Origin: a virus
Direction: 5' to 3' (one strand)
Length of the DNA stretch: 29,244 nucleotides
Virus record (IMG/VR): IMGVR_UViG_3300024177_000032
Span: 1-29,244 of that record
Below the pieces are notes generated by a model. The model was not told the origin of the DNA. It ran no database searches and saw nothing but the letters and a program-made list of their open reading frames with translations. The position numbers and the translations under genes are program-made. This document shows positions 5,377 through 24,894 of the stretch, piece by piece. Positions within the stretch are counted from its first letter, which is position 1, and each line of letters opens with the position of its first letter.

Positions 5377-7508
5377 TCCTCCTCAATCGACTCTATGTTC
5401 CCTTCCATATCCCGTTTGACGATTTTCTTCCTTGCCTTGGCTTCTGGCACCTTCAAGGTGATATTCGGTTCCAGCGTGATCTTCGGGGATTCGATCTTAA
5501 TAGTTGGCGGGCTTGCGGAGACATTGACGATGGGGACTTCTTGCTTGGGGACGTTCACGTTGACCGTCGGGGATGCTTGCCTGGGAACCTGGACGTTGAC
5601 AACAGGCGCGTCTTGCTTGGGAACCTGGACATTGATCGTTGGCGGGGCCTGTGGGGCCGACTGAACCGTTACCTGGGCCGGGGAAGACTGCACATTGACC
5701 GTCGGGGGCATCTGCTGGGGCACGTTCACGTTGATCGTGGGGGCGTCCTGCTTGGGCACGTTCACGGTCACCTGGGCGGGTCTAACATTCACCTCCGGGG
5801 CGGTGACGACGATGCGGGGGGCCGGCGTTGTGACGTTCACTATCGGCTGGGGCACATCCACGTTGATGATCGGGGACAAGGTAATGGATTGCTGGGCCTG
5901 AGATTCCCGCTTGGCGGCGTGTGCTTTTTCGAGAACCGCCGCGTGGCCATTGCTGAAATGCTTGCCCAATCGCCCGTTCATGTCCGACCCGTGCGTATCG
6001 GATTCCTCGCGGTGGCCGATAGCCGGCAATGTCCCGTGCGGCGTCTTCGGCGTCCTCTCCTCGTGGAGGCTCTCCCGCTCCCCGCTCAGCAGGTTCCCCA
6101 TCAGGCCGCCGCCCCCCATCATGCCTGGGACCATGCCCATCTTCTTCTGAAGCTCCATCATCTTCTTGGCCCGGTAGATGGCCGGGGACAATTCGCCGTC
6201 CTCGACTGGCTCGCGGCCCCTGAGCTCGCAAATCTGGTTAACCGTGATGGCGTCGGCCCCGATATCCACCTCAAGGTCGGAGTTCAATTGGGCGGCGTCA
6301 GCCGGCGAGCAATCGTCATACCATACGACGATGTCCGGCCACCATTTGCCAAACCACTTTGTATATGCCTGGCCCCGCATCTCAAGCGTGGGGTTCAAAG
6401 CATATTGAGCGAATTGGACCAGGGCAGCCTCGGAAGTGTTCCGCTGCACGTCCTGGGCGATGCCCACGACGAACTTGGGCACGCCGAATAGGGCCAGGAT
6501 GCAGTCCCTCAATTGATCTGCCGATTGAATGTAGTCCATTTCCCTGGGATTGATCATCATCGGCACGACCTTCATGCCTGGCGGCATAATGATCGGTTTA
6601 CCAGCCCTACGCTCCCCCTGGTAGCGGGATACCCATTTCTGCTCGACGCGGGAGATGTCCTCGTCGGACGGGTCGAAGAATTCCGGCCCCAACTCGATGG
6701 CGATGGACGGGAAAGAGCCTTGCTTCATCGTATGCCAGCGGGCCTGGTCGACGGATTCCGACGAGTCGATCCAGCGGGATCCGGCGTCCTCCGGGCTATA
6801 GCCGTCAATCTTCGATATGGGGGACTTGGCCGGGATATGGAGGACTTCCTCGGCCGGGAAGACCAATCGCTTGTAGCCGCCCTCGACCGGCCGAATCTCG
6901 TACTCGTCGATGATGTTCTCAGTCCCGACGACCGGCCAGACCCAATGGGAAGGGAGCACCCACATCTCCGCGCACGGTCCCAGCCCGTTCGGGGGCATCC
7001 AGATGTACTCGTTGCCGGTAGCGCACCCCATCAGCTCCTGCTCGTAGGCGAATTGATAATGGGTGTCGATCTTGTTCGGGTTGAGGAACTTCTCGGTGAT
7101 AGGATGGTAGGAAGGGGCTGGCTCCAGGACCTCGTCCTGGGCCATCGTCGGCAATCCCTTGCATACCCTGCCCAGGTACTTGAGCCTTTCCTGGTGGATG
7201 ATCTGCTTGCGGTAAGGCCCGTCGATATGCCACTTGCGGCGGGTTTCCGAGTATGCCTTCTGGCGGTAGGAGACGTTGGCGACCTGCTGGGCGATGACCT
7301 TGCAGCGGGCCTGGGCAGCGACGAAAACCCAATGGCGTATGTGGCGTACCAGTTCCGCCCTGTTCGCGGTCCAAGCCCCTGTCAATTGGCCTAATGATGG
7401 GCCGCGTGACAGCAAATCGGCGAGGACGCGGGCGGCGTTCCACCGCTTCTCGGAGGATGGCTCCCCCTGGATGGCCGTATGGCGCTGTTTCAGCAATCCT
7501 TGAAGCAT
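5373..7508 (-). CDS. Portal protein with long valine-proline repeat extension
   Basis: Residues 1 to about 480 match phage portal proteins of the HK97 gp3/SPP1 gp6 superfamily in order: a helical N-terminus, the LMGCATGNEYIWMPP region, a strand-rich clip region, the stem-like IPAKSPISKIDGYSPED segment, and the late ALFGVPKFVVGIAQDV...NTSEAALVQFAQYALNPTLE region typical of portals. The portal is the 12-subunit channel through which terminase pumps DNA. After a glycine/methionine-rich link (MVPGMMGGGG), residues about 530-690 form some ten repeats of a VNVxVPKQxxP pattern. It then ends in a basic and acidic tail. At 711 residues it is longer than most portals because of this extension. The likely promoter lies at 7551-7579. 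Confidence 0.9.
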   Translation of the reverse strand: MLQGLLKQRHTAIQGEPSSEKRWNAARVLADLLSRGPSLGQLTGAWTANRAELVRHIRHWVFVAAQARCKVIAQQVANVSYRQKAYSETRRKWHIDGPYRKQIIHQERLKYLGRVCKGLPTMAQDEVLEPAPSYHPITEKFLNPNKIDTHYQFAYEQELMGCATGNEYIWMPPNGLGPCAEMWVLPSHWVWPVVGTENIIDEYEIRPVEGGYKRLVFPAEEVLHIPAKSPISKIDGYSPEDAGSRWIDSSESVDQARWHTMKQGSFPSIAIELGPEFFDPSDEDISRVEQKWVSRYQGERRAGKPIIMPPGMKVVPMMINPREMDYIQSADQLRDCILALFGVPKFVVGIAQDVQRNTSEAALVQFAQYALNPTLEMRGQAYTKWFGKWWPDIVVWYDDCSPADAAQLNSDLEVDIGADAITVNQICELRGREPVEDGELSPAIYRAKKMMELQKKMGMVPGMMGGGGLMGNLLSGERESLHEERTPKTPHGTLPAIGHREESDTHGSDMNGRLGKHFSNGHAAVLEKAHAAKRESQAQQSITLSPIINVDVPQPIVNVTTPAPRIVVTAPEVNVRPAQVTVNVPKQDAPTINVNVPQQMPPTVNVQSSPAQVTVQSAPQAPPTINVQVPKQDAPVVNVQVPRQASPTVNVNVPKQEVPIVNVSASPPTIKIESPKITLEPNITLKVPEAKARKKIVKRDMEGNIESIEEE

Positions 7509-9580: not shown

Positions 9581-9604
9581 AGATGCACTAAGGTAAAATC
9601 GCAG

Positions 9605-10058
9605 GCAATCTCCAATTTCGGTGGCATTCTGTCAATCGCCCGCAGATCCAAAAAAGATTGGGGGCATTAAGCTACACGGTCACAACGGATAGATCGCCTT
9701 CCAATCTCTATTATCGCCCGGCATCCTTTTTCTCGGTTTCAATGGCACTATCGCCCATGAATAGGAAGGGGCAAGGCTCTATACGTTTGCAGTCTTTTAC
9801 TCGTCCCATCCAAGGAAAATACTGGCGTTTGTGGCATTCGGTATCATCGCAGCATTCACCAGTATCGGACATCCATCCGCTCGGTATCAAATAGATCGTC
9901 GTCTTCCCATTGAAATTCGCTGGCGTACCTTTGTCCGGTTCCAAATACTTGTTCGCCAGCGAATGGCACGTACACTTTCGGTAACAAGGGGCGTATCGCC
10001 AAAAAGGAAATAGCAAACACCCTTAGACTCGATTCCAACGGGCTTATCATTCGCTATT
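9605..10058 (-). repeat. TIGR-like array, block C (nine elements)
   Basis: Elements on the minus strand follow GCGAN, spacer, 8-base loop, spacer, TGC or CGC. Plus-strand element starts (GCA/GCG side) are 9605, 9664, 9721, 9771, 9825, 9869 (weak), 9923, 9966 and 10013. Loops in plus reading include TCGGTTTC (9733), ACGGTCAC (9676), TCGGTAAC (9978), TCGGTATC (9838, 9881) and CCGGTTCC (9935). Spacers are 9 and 9 in most, 10 and 9 in two, and 13 and 13 in the one nearest the Tas-like gene (10013-10054). Some elements are closed by perfect stems, such as ATTCGCTG/CAGCGAAT at 9915-9922/9957-9964. Spacer sequences differ between all elements. Confidence 0.85.
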
Positions 10059-10061
10059 CCC

Positions 10062-10937
10062 TTACTTCTGCCATTCGATCCACAGGTTCTTGAGCAGCAG
10101 CTTGGCCGCCAAGAGCATTCCGTGCCGATGACATCTGAGATCAGAGTAGTCAGGGTGTGCTGCCTTGAACTCCTGTTTCTTCGCGTCATAGCGCTTGCGG
10201 TAGGGGCCTTCGCGATTCCCCTTGACCAGGTTCTCCCCGATCAGGTATGCGATGGACCGCCGCCGGGGGCTATACCCAAAAGCTTCCCATTCCGACGCGG
10301 GAAGCTTCCCTTCCTTGCCGAACCGCCACGTCGAGCCCATCAGCGTCTTGTCCTCGAACGTCCAGGGGGCGCATCCCATCCGCCGCCAGACTTTGCCGGG
10401 ATTGGCGTAGTTGGCGAAATCGCCGACCTCCCCGACGATGACGGCCAATGACGGCATGCCGAAGCCCCGCTGCTCAGGCAAGGCGACCCAGGCCGCGACG
10501 GGCAGCTTGGCAGCGAGTTTGCCCATCTCCTTTTCCAGGGACTTCTGCATCACGTCGAAGGCGTCAATGCCGATCAGCGTGGTCTTGACGACCCCGCTGA
10601 AGGGAGAGGAAATCTCGTCGTTGGCGATCTGCTTGATGACGGCGGACGCCTCCTGGAACTTTTTCAGGCGGTCCTTCTCGGCCATTGAGCTGGAGTAGCC
10701 CAGCGTGCCGGCGACGACGGACTGGAGTCTGTTGGCCTGCATGATCCGGCTCTTGATGATCACAGAACGCTGCCGCTGAAGAGCTTGCAATTCAGGAACG
10801 GCGGAGATCAGACGACGGCTCGGTAACACACTGGTAGTCGTCTCCGTCGCCCCAGGTTCCGCAGCGGCGGGCAACCCTTGACTCGGTTGCATATAGCCAT
10901 TCGTTCCCGCCGTTGTCGTTTCCAATGTCTCACGCAT
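10062..10937 (-). CDS. Tas-like protein: IS110-type C-terminal / Nop-like domain, no nuclease
   Basis: The ATG at 10937 follows CGGAGG and is preferred to the one at 10988. The 291-residue product has a disordered first 45 residues, a helical segment at 47-145 (ELQALQRQRSVIIKSRI, EKEMGKLAAKLP), then the IS110-family C-terminal domain at about 154-290: GFGMPSLAVIVGEVGDF (158-174), MGCAPW (187-192), YSPRRRSIAYLIGENLVK (222-239), and HGMLLAAKLLLKNLW (272-286). In IS110 transposases and in Tas proteins of TIGR systems this domain is related to the Nop domain of box C/D RNPs and binds structured guide RNA. The DEDD catalytic domain of IS110 is absent, and no RuvC or HNH motif is visible, so a TasA-like RNA-guided DNA-binding protein is inferred. 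Array blocks flank it on both sides. Confidence 0.8.
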   Translation of the reverse strand: MRETLETTTAGTNGYMQPSQGLPAAAEPGATETTTSVLPSRRLISAVPELQALQRQRSVIIKSRIMQANRLQSVVAGTLGYSSSMAEKDRLKKFQEASAVIKQIANDEISSPFSGVVKTTLIGIDAFDVMQKSLEKEMGKLAAKLPVAAWVALPEQRGFGMPSLAVIVGEVGDFANYANPGKVWRRMGCAPWTFEDKTLMGSTWRFGKEGKLPASEWEAFGYSPRRRSIAYLIGENLVKGNREGPYRKRYDAKKQEFKAAHPDYSDLRCHRHGMLLAAKLLLKNLWIEWQK

Positions 10938-11027
10938 AAACTGCCTCCGGTTAAAGGATGATGCGGGCAGTCTCCTAAACGGTTGCATCCAGCCACCCGC
11001 CCGCGAAATGGAACCTCAAAGAAAACG

Positions 11028-11519
11028 GCAACCTTTCACTCGTATTCATGGGGCGTGTCGCCGCGCTCTTTCTCATTATCGCCAGGCACTCATTGAATCG
11101 TTTTCATCGCGTCATTCGCCCGGCGATTACCGCAAAAAATGGGCATTACCACTATCGGTTTCAAGGAAAGTGTCGCCCATTGACTCAAACATGAGGCAAA
11201 GCCTTTGTCGGTTTCACAGCCCTATTCGCCGCAAGCCCAAGAAACTTTGCCCGCCGTGCTCCATCGATTGAGGAATACCGCCCCTTTCGGAACGGGATGA
11301 GTTGAATGGGCCACGGACGGGCAAATTCTATGGGGCACCGCTCTTTTCGGTCGCACGCTGGCCATCGCCCTAAAAGCATCAGGCACACCACTTCTCGATT
11401 GCAAAACCCAGGCCGCCCAATATGTCAATGGGGCAATAGGACTTTCGATTTCACACCGAGTATCGCCCCAAAAGCCCAGAAATATCATTGGCTTACTCGA
11501 TTGCAACATCATGATGGAT
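11028..11519 (-). repeat. TIGR-like array, block B (seven clear elements)
   Basis: Clear elements start (plus-strand GCA) at 11028, 11086, 11143, 11196, 11335, 11383 and 11433. Each has exactly 9 bases, an 8-base loop, 9 bases and an ATCGC-type edge. Loops in plus reading are TCGTATTC, TCGTTTTC, TCGGTTTC, TCGGTTTC, TCGGTCGC, TCGATTGC and TCGATTTC. A weak eighth copy has loop TCGATTGC at 11498-11505 with poor edges. The 105 bases between 11230 and 11334 hold no clear copy and may contain decayed ones. The block fills the whole interval between the 172-residue gene and the Tas-like gene, with no believable ORF of its own. Confidence 0.85.
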
Positions 11520-11530
11520 GTTCCTGGGCC

Positions 11531-12049
11531 TCACGCCGCCTTGCCCACTTCTTTCCTCACCTGGGCGAAGATACTTTGCAATTCGCCTTCGCTGATTACC
11601 TCCCTGACCGGCTTGGAAGTCGGAACCCTCGCGGCCAATGTCTCGCACAGCCTGGCATTGAACAGATGCCCGTCGGATACGCTGCGCTCCATCTCGGCGA
11701 TCTTCCGCAGGTCCTTGCCGCACAATAGGCCAAGCTGCGTGCCCCCGATAAAATAATCGTAAACAGAGCGGAAGGCCCGGCCCACGGCCTCGGATTCTGC
11801 CGGAACAACCTTCGGGATGCCCACCCTGGCGTAATAGCCAACATCCCGCTTCATCTGAACATTGGCAGCGTGCCTGGCATTGTAAACCAACCCACGAATG
11901 GCGTCCTGAATAAGCGAACTGATCAGATCATCGAATTCTGGCATTGCTCGAATTTCTTGCTCGGCTTGGTTTACAGCAGCCTCGATATCGCCCCCGTGAT
12001 CAAGGGCCGCTTTTTGGGCGGCATCAAGAACTTCTTGCGGCATTTTCAT
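11531..12049 (-). CDS. Unrecognised 172-residue protein between array blocks
   Basis: ATG at 12049 has a strong TTGGGAGG site. The product is almost wholly helical: MKMPQEVLDAAQKAALDHGG, a DLISSLIQDAIRGLVYNARHA helix region, a conserved-looking GRAFRSVYDYFIGGTQLG segment and KLCETLAARVP-like repeats at the C-terminal side. No nuclease, zinc or membrane motif is visible. It is encoded directly after array block A, under the same promoter, and directly before array block B and the Tas-like gene. That placement makes it a candidate accessory factor of the array system, such as a processing or stability factor, but function is unknown. Confidence 0.75.
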   Translation of the reverse strand: MKMPQEVLDAAQKAALDHGGDIEAAVNQAEQEIRAMPEFDDLISSLIQDAIRGLVYNARHAANVQMKRDVGYYARVGIPKVVPAESEAVGRAFRSVYDYFIGGTQLGLLCGKDLRKIAEMERSVSDGHLFNARLCETLAARVPTSKPVREVISEGELQSIFAQVRKEVGKAA

Positions 12050-12066
12050 TGAATGCCTCCCAAAAG

Positions 12067-12327
12067 AAGGCGTTGCAATTTCATAGTCGGTTTCATAGTC
12101 ATAATCGCAACGCCTTCACGATCCTATTATCGGAGAAAGGGAAGCATAACCATCGGTCGGCTTCACGTCATCACCCGCTCCCCATTTCCCGAAATGCCGC
12201 AACGCACCATACCGATCACAACAAGGAGATCGCGGCAAATCTGTACGGCCACACTCGGTTTCATATCCGGTTTCGCGAATAGGCCCAGCACTATCCTCTA
12301 CGGTAACAACAACTCAATCGCCGGGCC
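12067..12327 (-). repeat. TIGR-like array, block A (five elements)
   Basis: Elements in plus coordinates: 12075-12108 (loop TCGGTTTC, spacers 9/9, stem AAGGCGTT/AACGCCTT), 12144-12178 (TCGGCTTC, 10/9), 12199-12233 (CCGATCAC, 10/9, stem TGCC/GGCA), 12243-12276 (TCGGTTTC, 9/9), and 12288-12321 (ACGGTAAC, 9/9, stem GGCCC/GGGCC). The block begins only about 10 bases after the predicted transcription start of the promoter at 12344-12372 and ends right before the ribosome site of the 172-residue gene. Confidence 0.85.
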
Positions 12328-12343
12328 TTCCCCCTTACATGCT

Positions 12344-12372
12344 ATTATAGGTATCCAAACCCCGGAAGTAAA
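12344..12372 (-). promoter_or_regulatory. Promoter of the array / Tas-like transcription unit
   Basis: TTTACT (12372-12367) and perfect TATAAT (12349-12344) with 17-base spacing on the minus strand. It lies just downstream of a terminator and reads straight into array block A. Confidence 0.85.
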
Positions 12373-12380
12373 GGACATGA

Positions 12381-12420
12381 AAAGAAAAAGGGCCGAACGG
12401 CAACCCTGCCGAATCGGCCC
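12381..12420 (-). terminator. Rho-independent terminator upstream of the array unit
   Basis: On the minus strand GGGCCGA (12420-12414), inner CGGCA/TGCCG arms and TCGGCCC (12396-12390) form a strong hairpin followed by TTTTTCTTT (12389-12381). It ends transcription from the right and insulates the array promoter, whose -35 box starts 9 bases further on. Confidence 0.85.
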
Positions 12421-12452
12421 AGATCGCCCAGGCGGACGACCGTTCCCTTACC

Positions 12453-12487
12453 GCTATGTCCCCACACGTATTCAGAACTCCAATCGC
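12453..12487 (-). repeat. Isolated TIGR-like element upstream of the terminator
   Basis: Plus reading: GCT (12453-12455), 10-base spacer, loop ACGTATTC (12466-12473), 9-base spacer, ATCGC (12483-12487), closed by CC/GG. It lies between the Ig-like gene and the terminator, so it would be carried on the upstream transcript. The rest of 12421-12586 holds no gene that I trust. Confidence 0.6.
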
Positions 12488-12586
12488 GGCAAGAACAAAA
12501 ATCCGCCACATGCTCCCACTCGTTAGCAAATCTTCTATCGCGGCGGAAAAATTCAAAGGGCATTGCAGTCGCAACGCTCCTTTTTT

Positions 12587-13075
12587 CTACGGCTGCTCGA
12601 CCGGCGTGCCCACGTCGATATCCAGCGTGGTGGCGGCCCCGGCGTTGATCAGGACGTCGATGGTCTTGGCGGCGACGGTGGACCCGTCGGCCCCGACCAA
12701 CTTCACGGTTACGTTGCATTCGCCCAACGGCCCAGCGGCAGCGACTACGCACGACATGCCGTCGGCCGAGGGCGTGACGCTGAGGAGCGCTGGATTGTCG
12801 GTCAGATACACGACAGAGCCGGGTGGAAGGGGCGTCGGGTTGTTCTTCTTGTCCTTAGCGCCCTTGACGGTGATGGGAAACTGCTGAGAATCGGGAAGCA
12901 CGATGTCGGCCACGAATTCGTCTCCTTGGTGCTTGAACGCCCCTCCCCAATGCCGGCACCTTGCCAGGATTGACGGAACAGGCTGGGTTTGCTCTGTAAA
13001 GGGTCCTACGGTGATAGATAGGCAGATTCGCCTCTTGCCACGAAGCCAGTCCCAGAAATCGCTGAGGCAATTCAT
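12587..13075 (-). CDS. Ig-like domain protein
   Basis: 162 residues from an ATG with GAGGTGG upstream. The first 55 residues (FWDWLRGKRRICLSITVG, CRHWGGAFKHQGDEF) form a distinct head. From residue about 60 the pattern FPITVKGAKDKKNNPTPLPP, then VVYLTDNPALLSVTPSADG and TVAAKTIDV is that of bacterial Ig-like (BIG2-type) domains: strands with L.VTPSADG and a final TxxxDV. Such domains decorate phage capsids and tails and may hold the virion to host surfaces. The gene closes a short operon whose upstream members encode the 398-residue protein and two small proteins. Confidence 0.7.
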   Translation of the reverse strand: MNCLSDFWDWLRGKRRICLSITVGPFTEQTQPVPSILARCRHWGGAFKHQGDEFVADIVLPDSQQFPITVKGAKDKKNNPTPLPPGSVVYLTDNPALLSVTPSADGMSCVVAAAGPLGECNVTVKLVGADGSTVAAKTIDVLINAGAATTLDIDVGTPVEQP

Positions 13076-13084
13076 CGGGCCACC

Positions 13085-13267
13085 TCACTTGAGATTGGCA
13101 TTGGCTTCCTTGGCGTCAGGCTCGGATAGGACGGTCGGCGGCTTGGCCTTGGCCAGGGCAGGGAACTCAATGATGTCCTTGCCGTCCTTGGACCTAATGA
13201 TGCATTGACCGATCTCGGTCTCGGCGTTCTGGCCTTTCAGGGACATGATAACGTCGAAGATTGTCAC
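13085..13267 (-). CDS. Unrecognised 60-residue protein
   Basis: GTG start at 13267 preceded by AGGAGG at a good distance. The product has a regular beta start (MTIFDVIMSLKGQNAETEIGQ), a middle CIIRSKDGKDIIEFPALAK and a proline/alanine-rich end. It precedes the Ig-like gene by 9 bases and may encode a small structural partner. No family is recognised. Confidence 0.6.
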   Translation of the reverse strand: MTIFDVIMSLKGQNAETEIGQCIIRSKDGKDIIEFPALAKAKPPTVLSEPDAKEANANLK

Positions 13268-13305
13268 TCGGATTCCTCCTTTGAAAACGGGTCACGATAC
13301 GAAAT

Positions 13306-13397
13306 GGCTGCTTACAGACGGCTTTTGCCCCAACCAACGTAGCACTATTCCTGCAAGCAGCCGGGCATGGCCAGATTGTTAGGGACCTGCCATACCC
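13306..13397. repeat. Two adjacent inverted repeats of unknown role
   Basis: Arms GGCTGCTT (13306-13313) and AAGCAGCC (13355-13362) enclose 41 bases. Immediately next, GGGCATGGC (13363-13371) and GCCATACCC (13389-13397) form a second dyad with one mismatch. No T run follows, so neither is a clear terminator. Their position beside a true array element (13404-13463) suggests decayed relatives of the array, but their loops do not match its consensus. Confidence 0.55.
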
Positions 13398-13403
13398 AAT
13401 GAT

Positions 13404-13463
13404 CCAAGGGCGTCGGCACCTCGGATGTCGATTGCAATCGGACATTCGCCAAAACGCCCTTGG
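13404..13463 (-). repeat. TIGR-like element D1 with long closing stem
   Basis: Core in plus reading: GCA (13416-13418), 9 bases, loop TCGATTGC (13428-13435), 9 bases, TTCGC (13445-13449). Around it CCAAGGGCGT (13404-13413) pairs with ACGCCCTTGG (13454-13463). It lies between the 83- and 60-residue genes. Confidence 0.8.
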
Positions 13464-13473
13464 ATTTCTCTTG

Positions 13474-13725
13474 CTACACGGTCGGCGGGGCGGGATCGGC
13501 AGTGACCGTCCATCCCAAGTCCGACATCAGGCTCGCCACGAACGGCACCCCCTGGGCGTCCCAGGAGCCGCGAATCTTCTCGATGAGCGGATCGACCAGC
13601 GTCGTCGCCAGCCAGCCCTGGCCCAAGCGATCCTCCAGCCAGGTGAAGGCTGCGTCGCCCACTGCCTGAATCTGACCTTGGGAATCCGACGCCGAGCCCG
13701 GAACCGCGAGCTTTTTGCCATCCAT
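13474..13725 (-). CDS. Unrecognised 83-residue protein
   Basis: ATG with AAGGAGATA upstream, an excellent ribosome site. The product runs from MDGKKLAVPGSASDSQGQ through a tryptophan-bearing helical middle (AAFTWLEDRLGQGW, LIEKIRGSWDAQG) to a proline-ended tail (TADPAPPTV). It is probably soluble and compact. Array element D1 follows its stop and D2 precedes its start, so it is expressed on a transcript that begins with D2. Confidence 0.65.
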   Translation of the reverse strand: MDGKKLAVPGSASDSQGQIQAVGDAAFTWLEDRLGQGWLATTLVDPLIEKIRGSWDAQGVPFVASLMSDLGWTVTADPAPPTV

Positions 13726-13768
13726 ACGAATATCTCCTTTGGAATTGATGGGCGATTAGTGGGTAAAT

Positions 13769-13810
13769 GTAGGCACCTTAAGGTTCGATTTCAAAGAGAT
13801 TCTCGCCTAC
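13769..13810 (-). repeat. TIGR-like element D2
   Basis: Plus reading: stem GTAG (13769-13772), GCA, 9 bases, loop TCGATTTC (13785-13792), 9 bases, CTCGC (13802-13806), stem CTAC. A TATAAT box on the minus strand at 13823-13818 would start RNA at the outer edge of this stem, which parallels the promoter-to-array layout at 12344. Confidence 0.8.
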
Positions 13811-13830
13811 GCTAATTATTATAGGAAAAC

Positions 13831-13896
13831 AAAAATCCTCCCAGGATGCGACCCCTTTAATCGGCTTCAGCTTTACATTCGCATCCTAGGATTTTT
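13831..13896 (-). repeat. TIGR-like element D3, also a terminator
   Basis: Plus reading: GCG (13848-13850), 10 bases, loop TCGGCTTC (13861-13868), 9 bases, TTCGC (13878-13882). Its stem AGGAT/ATCCT is extended by AATCCT/AGGATT and bordered by A/T runs (13831-13835 and 13892-13896). It begins at the base after the stop of the 398-residue gene, so it could end that transcript as a hairpin plus T run. Confidence 0.75.
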
Positions 13897-16778: not shown

Positions 16779-17663
16779 CTACCATACACGGAGTCGCTGC
16801 ATGCCTCTTTCACCAAAGAAGAGTGCCAAAGCCACTGCCATGACGAGATCGTCGTGCGCCTGCCCCTCGGCCCCGGCGGTCTCGTTGGCGGCCTTGGTGA
16901 TTCGGATCTTAAATTCCCGCAATTCCTGGAGCAGCAATTCGACCTCCGGGATGCCCGCCGCGAAGCCCAGCCTCCCGGTCTCCAACATCACCGTCAATAG
17001 CCCGACCAATTCCATCTTGGGGACGTGGAAGCCCTTCGGCTCCTCGGTCACGGCCTTGCCGCCGGTGATGAGGATGGGCACGATCCTGATGCCCAAGCGA
17101 GCCCGCTGGAACATCTCCACGACCGGCTCGCCAACGCCACCCCAGTCTACGACCAGGACCGATTTCCCCTCTACTATTATAGGATGCTGGCAAAGCCTCT
17201 TGACGTACTTCACAATGTCAATGTAATCCGTGCCCAGGGGGAATTGCCTTAGCGCCCTGCCCTTGTAGTTGCGGACGAAATCCTTGGGCTTGTCCGTGGG
17301 CTCGGCTGGCGTCATGCCGTCATCGAAGGCCACCTCCCCAGCCCGGTAGGGATTAAGCTTGGAGGTAAGGTCGCCGCCTTGGGGCTTCTTGTCCCAGGGA
17401 TTTTCAATGGGCTTGAGGTCAACCAGGGCGTGACCGCCTTCCTTAAGCCTTATCGTGGCCAGGTACTGCTGGCAGTTCTTGCAGCTGCACGGAGATTCCT
17501 TCATTCCGCCTGGGTTCTCTTCCTCGATAAATCGCTTGGTGACAAGGCAACGGACTTTTGAGATGGGCTCAGCAACTGGCTCTAAGGGCATATCGACGCG
17601 CTCAATAAACGCGAGCGCTGCGAAATCTGATCTTTTTCCGAGGTCCAAGCCAAGGATATTCAT
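16779..17663 (-). CDS. terL (nuclease part): Terminase large subunit, nuclease half
   Basis: 294 residues from the ATG at 17663, which overlaps the tagged gene upstream. It begins with the RNase H-like nuclease core: MNILGLDLGKRSDFAALAFI (first acid D7 and D13), then VLVVDWGG (D173) and near the end HDDLVMAVALALFFGE (D271/D272), the three acidic positions of TerL nucleases that cut concatemers during packaging. Between the first and second acids, residues about 48-135 are an insertion with CSCKNC (59-64). No ATPase domain precedes it. That half is encoded 2.15 kb upstream at 19816-20733, so the enzyme is split and must associate in trans. Confidence 0.85.
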   Translation of the reverse strand: MNILGLDLGKRSDFAALAFIERVDMPLEPVAEPISKVRCLVTKRFIEEENPGGMKESPCSCKNCQQYLATIRLKEGGHALVDLKPIENPWDKKPQGGDLTSKLNPYRAGEVAFDDGMTPAEPTDKPKDFVRNYKGRALRQFPLGTDYIDIVKYVKRLCQHPIIVEGKSVLVVDWGGVGEPVVEMFQRARLGIRIVPILITGGKAVTEEPKGFHVPKMELVGLLTVMLETGRLGFAAGIPEVELLLQELREFKIRITKAANETAGAEGQAHDDLVMAVALALFFGERGMQRLRVW

Positions 17664-17860
17664 TTGCACGCCTCATCGACAAGGTCCGCGATATCCTCCA
17701 GCGGATCGTCAACCAGCCCAGCCATGAGCCATTCCTTATTGTATTCGTTGCTGGCCCTAGTCGCCTCGTCGTAGGAGATATCGACGCAATTGAATACGGC
17801 CATCTGGAACTCATAAGGAGTTCCGTGCTTTTCCTTCAATTTTCGTTGCGCCCTATTCAT
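17660..17860 (-). CDS. Tagged 66-residue protein
   Basis: Both ends overlap neighbours by ATGA. The body is a charged helical module (MNRAQRKLKEKHGTPYEF, SNEYNKEWLMAGLV) and the end DDPLEDIADLVDEACK is a full match to the tag. It directly precedes the terminase nuclease gene and is likely to supply its ribosome site. Confidence 0.75.
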   Translation of the reverse strand: MNRAQRKLKEKHGTPYEFQMAVFNCVDISYDEATRASNEYNKEWLMAGLVDDPLEDIADLVDEACK

Positions 17861-19556: not shown

Positions 19557-19819
19557 TTGCACGCCTCCTCTACCAGGGACTTGATATTCCGCAAGGGATC
19601 CTCATAATCGGGAAGCCACGCCAATTCGCCCCTGACCAGCTCGAACCAATAGACCATATTCTCGTCGTCTTCCTCTTCCGCCCGTTTCATGGCTGTCTCG
19701 ACAGCCACCTTGGCGTATTCCATGCCGAGGCCCCTTACGAGGTCCTTGGCCTTGAGCCATGCTTTTTTGTCGTAACGGTAGGGCAGGTCAATATCGGACT
19801 GTCTTATTTTCCTGCTCAT
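19553..19819 (-). CDS. Tagged 88-residue protein after the terminase ATPase
   Basis: Starts by ATGA overlap with the terminase ATPase gene. The body is helical and acidic (KAWLKAKDLVRGLGMEYAK, ETAMKRAEEEDDENMVYW). Ends EDPLRNIKSLVEEACK. It occupies the point where an unsplit large terminase would continue into its nuclease domain. Confidence 0.75.
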   Translation of the reverse strand: MSRKIRQSDIDLPYRYDKKAWLKAKDLVRGLGMEYAKVAVETAMKRAEEEDDENMVYWFELVRGELAWLPDYEDPLRNIKSLVEEACK

Positions 19820-20733
19820 ACATCCACCCGATCATTCGCCGAGATGATCACCGGCTTTGGCCAGGTCGATTCATCGAAGAGGTCGAACGCATCGATGTCG
19901 TCCCGGACCGACTGGGCGATGGCCCATTCCGGGAACATCTGGCCGACAGCGTCCTCGAACGAGCAGCAGAACTCTTGCTTGTAAACCCGCTCGCCCTTCG
20001 CCTTCCGTTCATTATCGAGGAATTCCTTGGTCAGCCGGGGGCATTGGTCAGCAGTTATCTGGACTTTCTTCCAATCCTTCCCCTTGATCCATTGGTTATA
20101 GAACCAACCACGCTTCCCGAACGGCGTGGACAATACGATCTTCCTGCCGTGGGATACTGCGAGCATGGGGGTCACCGCGTCGTATAAAGCATCAAGTACA
20201 CGGGAAGCCTCGTCGATGACCAGCAATCCCACGGAGGAGTACGAGCGGATGTTACCCTCATTCTTTCCGGGTAGGGCCACGATACGCGATCCATTGCTAA
20301 ACTCCTTGGAAAACTCGTTGTTCTTGGTGATGGTAATAGCGGGGGCCTTTTCCTGGCTGTCCCCCATCCTGAAGGGGCGGTTGAGCCACGGCTCCAGGAA
20401 CGGCATGATCTTGGTCTTGAGCAATTCGATGGATTGGCGGTCGGTAGGGCTCAGGACCAGGATAAGGCAAGGGGCCTCGCACAATATGGCCTTGCTGACG
20501 ACGGACGCCGTGAGCTCCGATTTGCCGATCTGCCTTGATGCGCACAGGAAAAGGTTCTGGCGGGAATGGAGGCATTCCATCTGCCAAGGATCCGGCTGCA
20601 TATCCCTCTTGTGGAAGAGCCGCTCTGGGTACTTCCAGAGATAGTCGGTCTCGATCAGCCGATTCTGGCGGGCGCGCTCGGCCAGCGCCACGGCCCATCC
20701 CGGTACTCTTGGCATGTCGCTCATAAAGTCCAT
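19816..20733 (-). CDS. terL (ATPase part): Terminase large subunit, ATPase half
   Basis: 305 residues from the ATG at 20733, or 302 from 20724. Order of motifs: Walker A ASRQIGKS (65-72), a helix with LSPTDRQSIELLK, Walker B LLVIDEA (170-176), coupling motif LSTPFG (201-206). This is the packaging motor ATPase of tailed phages. The protein stops at SANDRVDV, just after the point where the RNase H-like nuclease usually begins. The nuclease is a separate gene at 16779-17663. The ORF is open upstream to 20913, but that part overlaps the broken tagged gene in another frame and is not believable. Confidence 0.9.
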   Translation of the reverse strand: MDFMSDMPRVPGWAVALAERARQNRLIETDYLWKYPERLFHKRDMQPDPWQMECLHSRQNLFLCASRQIGKSELTASVVSKAILCEAPCLILVLSPTDRQSIELLKTKIMPFLEPWLNRPFRMGDSQEKAPAITITKNNEFSKEFSNGSRIVALPGKNEGNIRSYSSVGLLVIDEASRVLDALYDAVTPMLAVSHGRKIVLSTPFGKRGWFYNQWIKGKDWKKVQITADQCPRLTKEFLDNERKAKGERVYKQEFCCSFEDAVGQMFPEWAIAQSVRDDIDAFDLFDESTWPKPVIISANDRVDV

Positions 20734-20760
20734 TTTACTTTGGCGGAGGGCGATTGTAAA
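20732..20760 (-). promoter_or_regulatory. Promoter just upstream of terminase ATPase
   Basis: TTTACA (20760-20755) and TAAAAT (20737-20732) with 17 bases between them. The RNA start would fall near 20725, at or beside the second ATG (20724), so translation from that transcript would be leaderless or nearly so. Confidence 0.55.
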
Positions 20761-20765
20761 GAAAA

Positions 20766-21079
20766 TTATCCACACGCCTCTTCGACAAGCCGCTTGATGT
20801 CGCGGAGCGGGTCCGGATAGTCCATTGCAAGCCTGTCCATGCAGACCTTCGGCGTGGCGGTATCCGCCCGGCCAATAGATGCAAATGACGTCTTCGTTAC
20901 GCAATAGATGCAAATGACGTCTTCGTTACGGTCGCCTTCCAAAGCATGTCGCCCATCCTGGAGATCAAAATAAACGGTTCAAGGGAAACGCAAACCGCGT
21001 CAGCGTAGTAGGCTGCCCCGCTTCGCAGCATATGCACTGGCGAAAGTGGACTCACAATGTCGCCCACGCGAATGCTCAT
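20766..21079 (-). pseudogene. Tagged VGDIVSP protein broken by a 29-bp duplication
   Basis: From the ATG at 21079 (ATGA overlap) the frame reads MSIRVGDIVSPLSPVHML and then stops (TAA) at the junction of two 29-bp copies (20873-20901 and 20902-20930). Removing one copy restores a 94-residue protein that continues GRADTATPKVCMDRLAMDYP and ends DPLRDIKRLVEEACG. This repaired product aligns along its whole length with the upstream neighbour at 21076-21372 (VGDIVSP, AVCVS..PF, GRAD, DYPDP). The gene is thus a recently disrupted paralogue unless the duplication is an assembly artefact. Confidence 0.85.
20873..20930. repeat. 29-bp perfect tandem duplication
   Basis: Copies 20873-20901 and 20902-20930 are identical with no flanking homology. 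Being 2 modulo 3 in length, it shifts the frame of the tagged gene that contains it. Confidence 0.95.
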
Positions 21080-23977: not shown

Positions 23978-24170
23978 CGCATGCCCTTTCCACCAATTCC
24001 CTGATTTCCAGCAAGGGATCCGGTTTAGCGTTCCCTTTATCAATCCAGCATTCCCAACAAAGATTGTCGTCATGCCGATCCTTAATGGGGATCTTCTTGT
24101 CGCACATCCAGCATTTACTCTTCCGTATCCTTTTGCTTGGGGATGTCTTCCTCCGGCCATTCCTCGTCAT
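23952..24170 (-). CDS. Tagged zinc-ribbon protein overlapping the small terminase gene
   Basis: ATG at 24170 has a textbook AGGAGG site, although it overlaps the small terminase gene by 56 bases. A later ATG at 24107 would lose the first cysteine pair. KCWMCDKK and LCWECW form CxxC...CxxC. The tag is PDPLLEIRELVERACDE plus six residues. Confidence 0.75.
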   Translation of the reverse strand: MTRNGRRKTSPSKRIRKSKCWMCDKKIPIKDRHDDNLCWECWIDKGNAKPDPLLEIRELVERACDEEQLPGS

Positions 24171-24894
24171 GGGCCTCCTCCTGTTCCGTAGCTGGTATTA
24201 TATTGACCTCGTCGGGGCTTACGGGCAATACACCGTTGGTGATGATCTTGCCATTCTCCCTGTCAATCAGCTTGTCCATCTCCAATATGCCCACGAATAC
24301 GGTGCGGATGATGTCCTTGACGTCGTTGGGATGGCTCGATACCGGGACCAATTGCTGGCCGTCCGGGGTCGTGTTGGAATTCTTGTTGACGATCATCCCC
24401 TCGATCTGCATCCTCTGCTGCCTCAGCTTGATGATGACGTCCATCCATCGCGGGTCGCCGGGGGCGTGGCCCTCGACGTACTTGTTCTCCTCGACGGTGG
24501 TCAGGTTCCCCTTCTTGCCCTTGGATTTCCCGGTGAGCAGCTTCTTCCTGTGGATCTTCTCGGAATCCTGCTTGGAAAGGTAGTAGGCGTGGTAGGCTTC
24601 CCTCAATTGCAGGTCGATGGAGGCCAATTCCTTCCTCACCTTGGTATCGAAAGAATCGATGGCCTGCTCTTTCCATTCTGCCTGGACCTTGCGGAGGTCG
24701 GTCCATATCTGCACGTTGGACAGGGTGTAGGGGCGGATGGAGGCGATGTGGTCGGCTATCATCTGGAGGGTATGGCCCTTGAGGTGCAACTCCATCTCGA
24801 TGGCCAGGTCGAGACGTCGCTGGTCCTTGGACCGCTTGGCCTGGGTGCCCCCTGCTGTTCCTTTCATCCCCTTCGGCGGCATGGCTTGTTCCAT
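24115..24894 (-). CDS. terS: Terminase small subunit
   Basis: 259 residues. After a basic start (PPKGMKGTAGGTQAKRSK) there is a helix-turn-helix region (AIEMELHLKGHTLQMIADHI, TLSNVQIWTDLRKVQAEW), as in TerS proteins that bind phage DNA at the packaging site. A long coiled middle and an acidic tail (EQEEAHDEEWPEEDIP) follow, fitting the oligomerisation and TerL-contact regions of the family. The genes of the large subunit lie about 3.4 and 6.5 kb further along the transcript. Start at 24894 or, with a slightly better site, 24882. Confidence 0.75.
   Translation of the reverse strand: MEQAMPPKGMKGTAGGTQAKRSKDQRRLDLAIEMELHLKGHTLQMIADHIASIRPYTLSNVQIWTDLRKVQAEWKEQAIDSFDTKVRKELASIDLQLREAYHAYYLSKQDSEKIHRKKLLTGKSKGKKGNLTTVEENKYVEGHAPGDPRWMDVIIKLRQQRMQIEGMIVNKNSNTTPDGQQLVPVSSHPNDVKDIIRTVFVGILEMDKLIDRENGKIITNGVLPVSPDEVNIIPATEQEEAHDEEWPEEDIPKQKDTEE

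What the first reader, a model, noticed from the sequence alone, without database searches (positions are those of the whole stretch)
10062..10937. The Tas-like protein has no visible nuclease
It keeps the IS110 C-terminal domain (GEVGDF, MGCAPW, AAKLLLKNLW) but lacks the N-terminal DEDD domain and shows no RuvC or HNH motif. A guide-directed DNA binder without cutting could silence genes of the host or of rival phages, or regulate the phage itself.
Basis: partly seen in the sequence, partly recalled or inferred. Interest (0 to 1): 0.75.

Follow-up and report, generated by a model that had tools for sequence, protein, structure and literature searches.

The report
Nuclease-free phage RNA-guided protein with partner
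This phage gene makes TasA, a known kind of RNA-guided DNA-binding protein that lacks a cutting domain; around it lie about 30 guide units and, in most relatives, a previously undescribed partner gene, and in relatives the guides change far faster than the rest of the locus, as expected if they aim at moving targets.

Summary
The protein at 10062-10937(-) is a solo Nop-domain protein with no nuclease fold (AlphaFold pLDDT 90, all helical). Its best solved matches are TIGR-TasR and TasH without their nuclease parts, then IS110-type recombinases. It is therefore TasA of TIGR-Tas, published in 2025 as the commonest Tas type. "No visible nuclease" is known, not new. Three things go beyond the published description. 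(1) About 30 stem-loop guide units (two 9-nt spacers each) lie around the gene at 9.6-13.9 kb, on the tasA strand. (2) A small all-helical partner gene (window 11531-12049) stands just upstream of tasA in 54 of 66 related alphaproteobacterial phage loci. It matches no Pfam, NCBIfam or PDB family and was not clearly seen without tasA in 594 genomes. (3) In two pairs of close relatives stems are 95-98% identical while spacers are 26-38% identical, far below fourfold-degenerate sites (60-82%). Many guides sit inside the translated 5' tail of tasA. No target was found in the window, in related phages or in one complete phage. Most likely role: guided binding without cutting, aimed at fast-changing foreign DNA. 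Self-regulation and a hidden or partner nuclease are disfavoured.

The parts
10062..10937 (-). tasA: solo Nop-domain guide-RNA-binding protein (291 aa from ATG 10937; possible alternative start GTG 10829)
   Evidence: AlphaFold pLDDT 90; VIA-align Z 16.7 to TIGR-TasR 9mty residues 111-295, Z 16.6 TasH, Z 13.9 ISCro4, Z 13.5 IS621; family profile hits TasR chain 9mty_A at E 1.4e-22
11531..12049 (-). conserved partner gene, 172 aa, all-helical, no known family
   Evidence: one profile finds it in 55 of 66 distinct tasA loci, 54 of them same strand within 1.6 kb upstream of the TasA domain; subfamilies joined by hhalign; model pLDDT 87; no PDB, Pfam, PHROG or NCBIfam assignment
9596..10063 (-). 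array I, downstream of tasA: 9 guide units (loop starts 9626, 9684, 9741, 9791, 9846, 9889, 9943, 9986, 10037)
   Evidence: box/stem scan
10804..10903 (-). two guide units overlapping the 5' coding tail of tasA (loop starts 10828, 10891)
   Evidence: loop boxes match the consensus; stems CGGAGA/TCTCCG and CGGCGGG/CCCGCCG
10963..11532 (-). array II, between partner and tasA: 9 guide units (loop starts 10987, 11048, 11106, 11163, 11216, 11355, 11403, 11453, 11505)
12066..12547 (-). array III, upstream of partner: 7 guide units (loop starts 12095, 12165, 12220, 12263, 12308, 12474, 12528)
   Evidence: 12220, 12263 and 12474 are weaker
13406..13880 (-). distal guide units (loop starts 13436, 13793, 13869)

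Best explanation
The locus is a TIGR-TasA system of an alphaproteobacterial tailed phage. Transcripts running through array, partner, array, tasA and array are cut into short dual-spacer guide RNAs. [quoted passage not shown] The two 9-nt spacers pair with opposite strands of one DNA site, which is bound and probably sharply bent but not cut. This blocks transcription or replication of the target. Because spacers are replaced much faster than neutral sites while stems and boxes stay fixed, the targets are probably changing foreign sequences (competing phages, plasmids or variable host loci) and not the phage's own genes. The helical partner most likely works with TasA, for example by joining complexes, binding RNA or DNA, or helping guide processing. 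Shown here: protein class, absence of a nuclease fold, guide anatomy and strand, conserved partner, rapid spacer turnover in relatives. Carried over from published TasR/TasH/TasA work: guide binding, two-strand pairing, DNA bending. Inferred: silencing as the effect, foreign targets, partner role.
For: Fold and sequence place it with TasR/TasH. The window scan at score 22 or more with strict 9/9/9 spacing gives 23 units on the tasA strand and 0 on the other, and 146 versus 4 in the other loci. A second box pattern (CCA-N9-[C/T]G-N4-CCA-N9-CG inside a stem) gives 267 versus 15. Window stems hold 36 G.U but only 5 A.C pairs, as expected for RNA made from the tasA strand (13 versus 4 when the two box-proximal pairs are left out). 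Partner found in 55 of 66 loci and, apart from two weak 47-residue matches, only beside tasA in 594 genomes. L061/L064: stems 123/126 identical, spacers 48/126, fourfold sites 120/146; L063/L080: stems 137/144, spacers 37/144, fourfold sites 78/131. Published: TasA binds 36-nt guides, TasR/TasH pair two spacers to two strands, and blocking without cutting is proposed for TasA (PMC12045711).
Against: No target was identified for any guide (the host search was insensitive to 18-mers). No binding, processing or silencing was tested. The window itself has no close relative, so spacer turnover is shown in the family, not in this phage. Only two close pairs support the rate claim. In L063/L080 the units were paired partly by stem similarity, which inflates stem identity but not spacer divergence.
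Confidence: 0.66

Rival explanations
1. Guided regulation of the phage itself or of fixed host genes: TasA acts like a programmable repressor that sets its own or the host's gene expression.
For: TasA cannot cut. Guides sit inside the tasA message, which would allow feedback when they are excised. One unit (L061/L064 at -820) keeps both spacers, and one half-spacer at +758 is shared.
Against: No self-match above chance in the predicted geometry, including the complete Rhizobium phage RHph_X2_25. Spacers change faster than fourfold sites. The conserved -820 unit lies inside the partner coding frame, so protein coding may conserve it.
Confidence: 0.15
2. A cutting system with the nuclease supplied in trans, by the partner or a host enzyme.
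For: A partner gene is conserved next to tasA in most loci.
Against: The partner model is all helical, with no match to a nuclease or any other solved fold (best Z 3.4), and no Pfam or NCBIfam nuclease.
Confidence: 0.07
3. DNA-bending aid to phage integration or recombination, as suggested for TasA in the discovery paper.
For: TasR bends its target almost 180 degrees (PMC12045711). Several relatives lie in bacterial genome assemblies, probably as prophages.
Against: About 30 different, rapidly changing guides are not needed for one fixed attachment site; no guide in the window or in RHph_X2_25 matches its own genome in the expected geometry.
Confidence: 0.07
4. A degenerate IS110 transposase remnant with chance palindromes around it.
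For: PHROG and Pfam name relatives 'transposase'.
Against: The Nop domain is conserved in 66 distinct loci with a conserved gene order. Guide units are strongly strand-biased and stem-conserved, and the fold is nearest to Tas proteins.
Confidence: 0.02

Closest known systems
TIGR-TasA with stem-loop arrays (Faure et al. 2025, PMC12045711)
   Different: Here a conserved non-ParB partner gene, guide units inside the translated tasA tail, about 30 units, and measured rapid in-place spacer turnover in relatives
TIGR-TasR and TasH nucleases (PDB 9mty, 9w03)
   Same: Same Nop fold (Z 16-17) and the same box C motif CCA in most relatives of the window
   Different: No RuvC or HNH domain
IS110-family recombinases (IS621, ISCro4)
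   Same: C-terminal RNA-binding domain fold (Z about 13.5-14) and sequence motifs
   Different: No DEDD domain, and many short guides where those elements use one bridge RNA
Box C/D snoRNP protein Nop5/Nop58 and Prp31
   Same: Nop domain fold (Z 7-9) and box C/D logic
   Different: No fibrillarin-binding N-terminal domain; arrayed phage guides
TasA operons with ParB-like genes (TasParB)
   Same: A small gene in operon with tasA
   Different: The partner here is all helical, with no ParB match found

Membership tests
TIGR-Tas, TasA class | Nop domain of the Tas kind | tested here: met
   Z 16.7 to TasR over 184 residues; family profile hits 9mty_A at E 1.4e-22
TIGR-Tas, TasA class | No N-terminal RuvC or HNH nuclease domain | tested here: met
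   residues 1-40 disordered, 41-142 helical coiled region, no nuclease fold in the model; TasR 1-110 not covered
[quoted passage not shown]
   about 30 units in the window, none on the other strand at the strict threshold; same in relatives
TIGR-Tas, TasA class | Array processed into short guide RNAs bound by the protein | not testable with these tools
   needs small RNA sequencing of the purified complex
TIGR-Tas, TasA class | Guide-directed binding of both strands of a DNA target | not testable with these tools
   no target found; needs a binding assay
IS110 family transposase | N-terminal DEDD (RuvC-like) catalytic domain | tested here: not met
   absent from the model; match covers only IS621 residues 124-312
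IS110 family transposase | Element ends and a bridge RNA | not tested
   dual-spacer guide units found instead
Box C/D snoRNP Nop5/Nop58 | N-terminal fibrillarin-binding domain | tested here: not met
   residues before the coiled region are about 40 and disordered
TasParB-TasA operon | ParB-like partner | tested here: inconclusive
   partner model all helical, no ParB among structural or family matches; absence from these lists does not exclude distant kinship

The most novel reading that the evidence does not exclude
TasA and its helical partner form a two-protein, non-cleaving RNA-guided interference complex. Its guides are re-written in place, inside fixed stems, by an active spacer-replacement process, and part of the guide set is carried within the coding sequence of tasA itself, so that guide excision feeds back on TasA production.
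Probability: 0.27. Interest if true: 0.87.

Novelty: new variant of a known kind. Interest (0 to 1): 0.6.

Why it matters
TasA is the commonest Tas effector, and its purpose, targets and source of spacers are stated open questions in the discovery paper. The family found here gives handles on them: a conserved partner gene to delete or co-purify, a cultured phage (Rhizobium phage RHph_X2_25 on Sinorhizobium americanum) that carries the system, and direct evidence that spacers change in place, faster than neutral sites, while stems stay fixed. That is unlike growth of a CRISPR array from one end, and it argues for changing foreign targets over fixed self-regulation.

Tried and rejected
Single-sequence searches (Pfam, PDB by phmmer, viral contigs by 8-mer patterns) gave little or nothing; a conserved-block alignment was needed. 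Array on the plus strand: considered because the motif also reads TCG...CA there, rejected by G.U versus A.C counts, by L010, whose regular array shows the same boxes on the tasA strand, and by strand counts. The first spacer register for the rhizobial relatives was off by one base; it was corrected after the constant A of box C CCA was seen. Spacer targets: four geometries with gaps of 0-2 were tested against about 0.8-0.95 Mb of related loci, the window and a complete phage. All were at chance level with the corrected register, and the two near-perfect 'B then A' self-hits of the first register vanished with it. Host-genome search with concatenated 18-mers returned nothing, but the tool's first look did not seed on them, so it is uninformative. 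Scans of viral collections with single 18-nt targets were judged without power and not run. VIA-align and Foldseek list no nuclease or ParB for the partner; that is absence of a match only. Rfam and tRNA scans of the window found nothing.

Full report
What was claimed.

Observation. The ORF is real: ATG 10937 to stop 10062, minus strand, with GGAGG a few bases before the ATG. AlphaFold with 60 relatives gives a confident, all-helical model (pLDDT 90): a disordered tail (1-40), a helical coiled region (41-142) and a Nop domain. The best solved matches are TIGR-TasR (Z 16.7, aligned only over TasR residues 111-295) and TasH, then ISCro4/IS621 (Z about 13.5-14), then Nop5 and Prp31. A family profile finds TasR by sequence at E 1.4e-22. 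No RuvC, DEDD or HNH fold is present. This is TasA, described in 2025 as the solo-Nop, nuclease-free and commonest member of TIGR-Tas (PMC12045711). The central point of the finding is therefore correct but already known.

Guide arrays. Around the gene lie about 30 units of the form stem-GGCGA-N9-TGnnACCGA-N9-TGCC-stem on the minus (tasA) strand, from 9596 to 13880. At the strict threshold there are 23 on the tasA strand and none on the other; related loci show 146 versus 4. Stems keep 36 G.U pairs but only 5 A.C pairs when read on the tasA strand (13 versus 4 outside the two box-proximal pairs), so the transcribed strand is the tasA strand. This matches the stem-loop TIGR arrays of the paper. 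A relative, L010, carries the same boxes in a compact array with 45-nt period and about 36 units, so stem-type and compact arrays occur in one TasA clade.

Family. A conserved-block alignment found 66 viral and 11 genome loci. The named hosts are Alphaproteobacteria (Magnetospirillum, Bosea, Hyphomicrobium, Rhizobium, Shinella, Methylobacterium, Metarhizobium), plus the cultured Rhizobium phage RHph_X2_25. The window's nearest relative is L008 at 53% identity. In most other relatives the boxes read CCA and CG or TG, close to the published TasR boxes CCA and UG.

Partner. A same-strand gene stands just upstream of tasA. Four clusters were seen; three are clearly homologous by profile comparison (hhalign E from 7e-9 to 1e-18). 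One profile built from them finds the gene in 55 of 66 distinct loci, 54 at the same place, with no other ORF hit in those loci. In 297 genomes of the order of Rhizobium esperanzae it occurs only in the genome whose tasA locus is known, and in 297 of the order of Magnetospirillum likewise, apart from two weak 47-residue matches. One further genome has tasA without a clear partner (L089). The window copy is 11531-12049. It has no Pfam, PHROG, PADLOC or NCBIfam assignment, and its all-helical model (pLDDT 87) has no PDB match (best Z 3.4). The paper reports no clear TasA partner apart from ParB-like genes; its neighbour clustering at 50% identity would split this family, whose members are 12-44% identical to the window's copy. 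I found no description of it in the library searched.

Spacer turnover. L061 and L064 come from one metagenome. Their TasA domains are 92% identical in protein and their seven units sit at the same coordinates. Stems are identical at 123/126 positions, boxes at 63/70, spacers at only 48/126; fourfold-degenerate sites are 82% and 80% identical in tasA and partner. L063 and L080 (TasA 97%) show spacers at 37/144 (26%, the random level) against stems 137/144 and fourfold sites 60% and 78%. Fisher tests give p about 1e-16 for each pair against both genes. Spacers thus change in place, faster than neutral sites. One spacer half stayed while its mate changed, so halves can be replaced separately. 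Apart from L061/L064 and one 9-mer shared by L006 and L080, probably by chance, no spacers are shared between loci.

Guides within tasA. In 47 of 65 relatives the tasA frame has no stop in the 150 nt before the domain, where units lie, while the other two frames are closed in 50 and 56. In 25 of 38 loci with nearby units, at least one unit lies downstream of an in-frame start with a Shine-Dalgarno sequence. L061/L064 and L002/L005 share their N-termini while the guide-bearing tails vary. Part of the guide set is thus carried in the coding sequence of a disordered tail; excision would cut the tasA message. In the window two units (10804-10903) overlap the tail, but the start there is not certain, because the closest relatives begin after their last unit.

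Targets. With the published pairing rule (spacer A followed by reverse complement of spacer B, gap 0-2; derived) no match above chance was found in the window, in the loci or in the complete phage RHph_X2_25. The host test was uninformative.

Mechanism. Shown: class, absent nuclease, guide anatomy and strand, conserved partner, rapid turnover in relatives. From published work: guide loading, pairing of two spacers to two strands, DNA bending. Inferred: blocking of transcription or replication of changing foreign DNA, and a supporting role for the partner. Self-regulation is less likely because guides neither match self nor persist.

Verdict. Known class (TasA), new variant through the partner, the embedded guides and the measured spacer turnover.

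Noticed in passing
window 16779-17669 and 19816-20913: The large terminase seems split: the ATPase part and the RNase H-like nuclease part lie in separate ORFs about 2.1 kb apart. An intron, insertion or true gene split was not examined.
   Followed up: no
L010 4143-7161 (tasA at 5485-6636): Compact array with 45-nt period and about 36 units, using the same boxes as the window's stem-loop array; looks intermediate between dual-repeat and stem-loop TIGR arrays.
   Followed up: partly
phage records H12-H27 and about 55 more: About 73 Mycobacterium phages encode a TasA-like protein annotated as hypothetical or transposase; their arrays and targets could be studied in Mycobacterium smegmatis.
   Followed up: no
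L061 about 1580 and L064 about 4947: A guide unit with both spacers conserved lies inside the 5' part of the partner coding frame; protein coding or a fixed target could explain it.
   Followed up: partly
window 24115-24894(-): 259-aa ORF with a weak PHROG match named RNase E (E 1e-4).
   Followed up: no
L005 917-1936(-): ORF with a long tandem repeat GHASAAGDG/GYRGHASAAG, about 3 kb upstream of tasA.
   Followed up: no
RHph_X2_25 unit at 24266 against 38300; L016 unit at 484: Two near-perfect 'spacer B, one base, spacer A' self-matches in the uncorrected register; gone after the register was corrected, so probably chance.
   Followed up: yes
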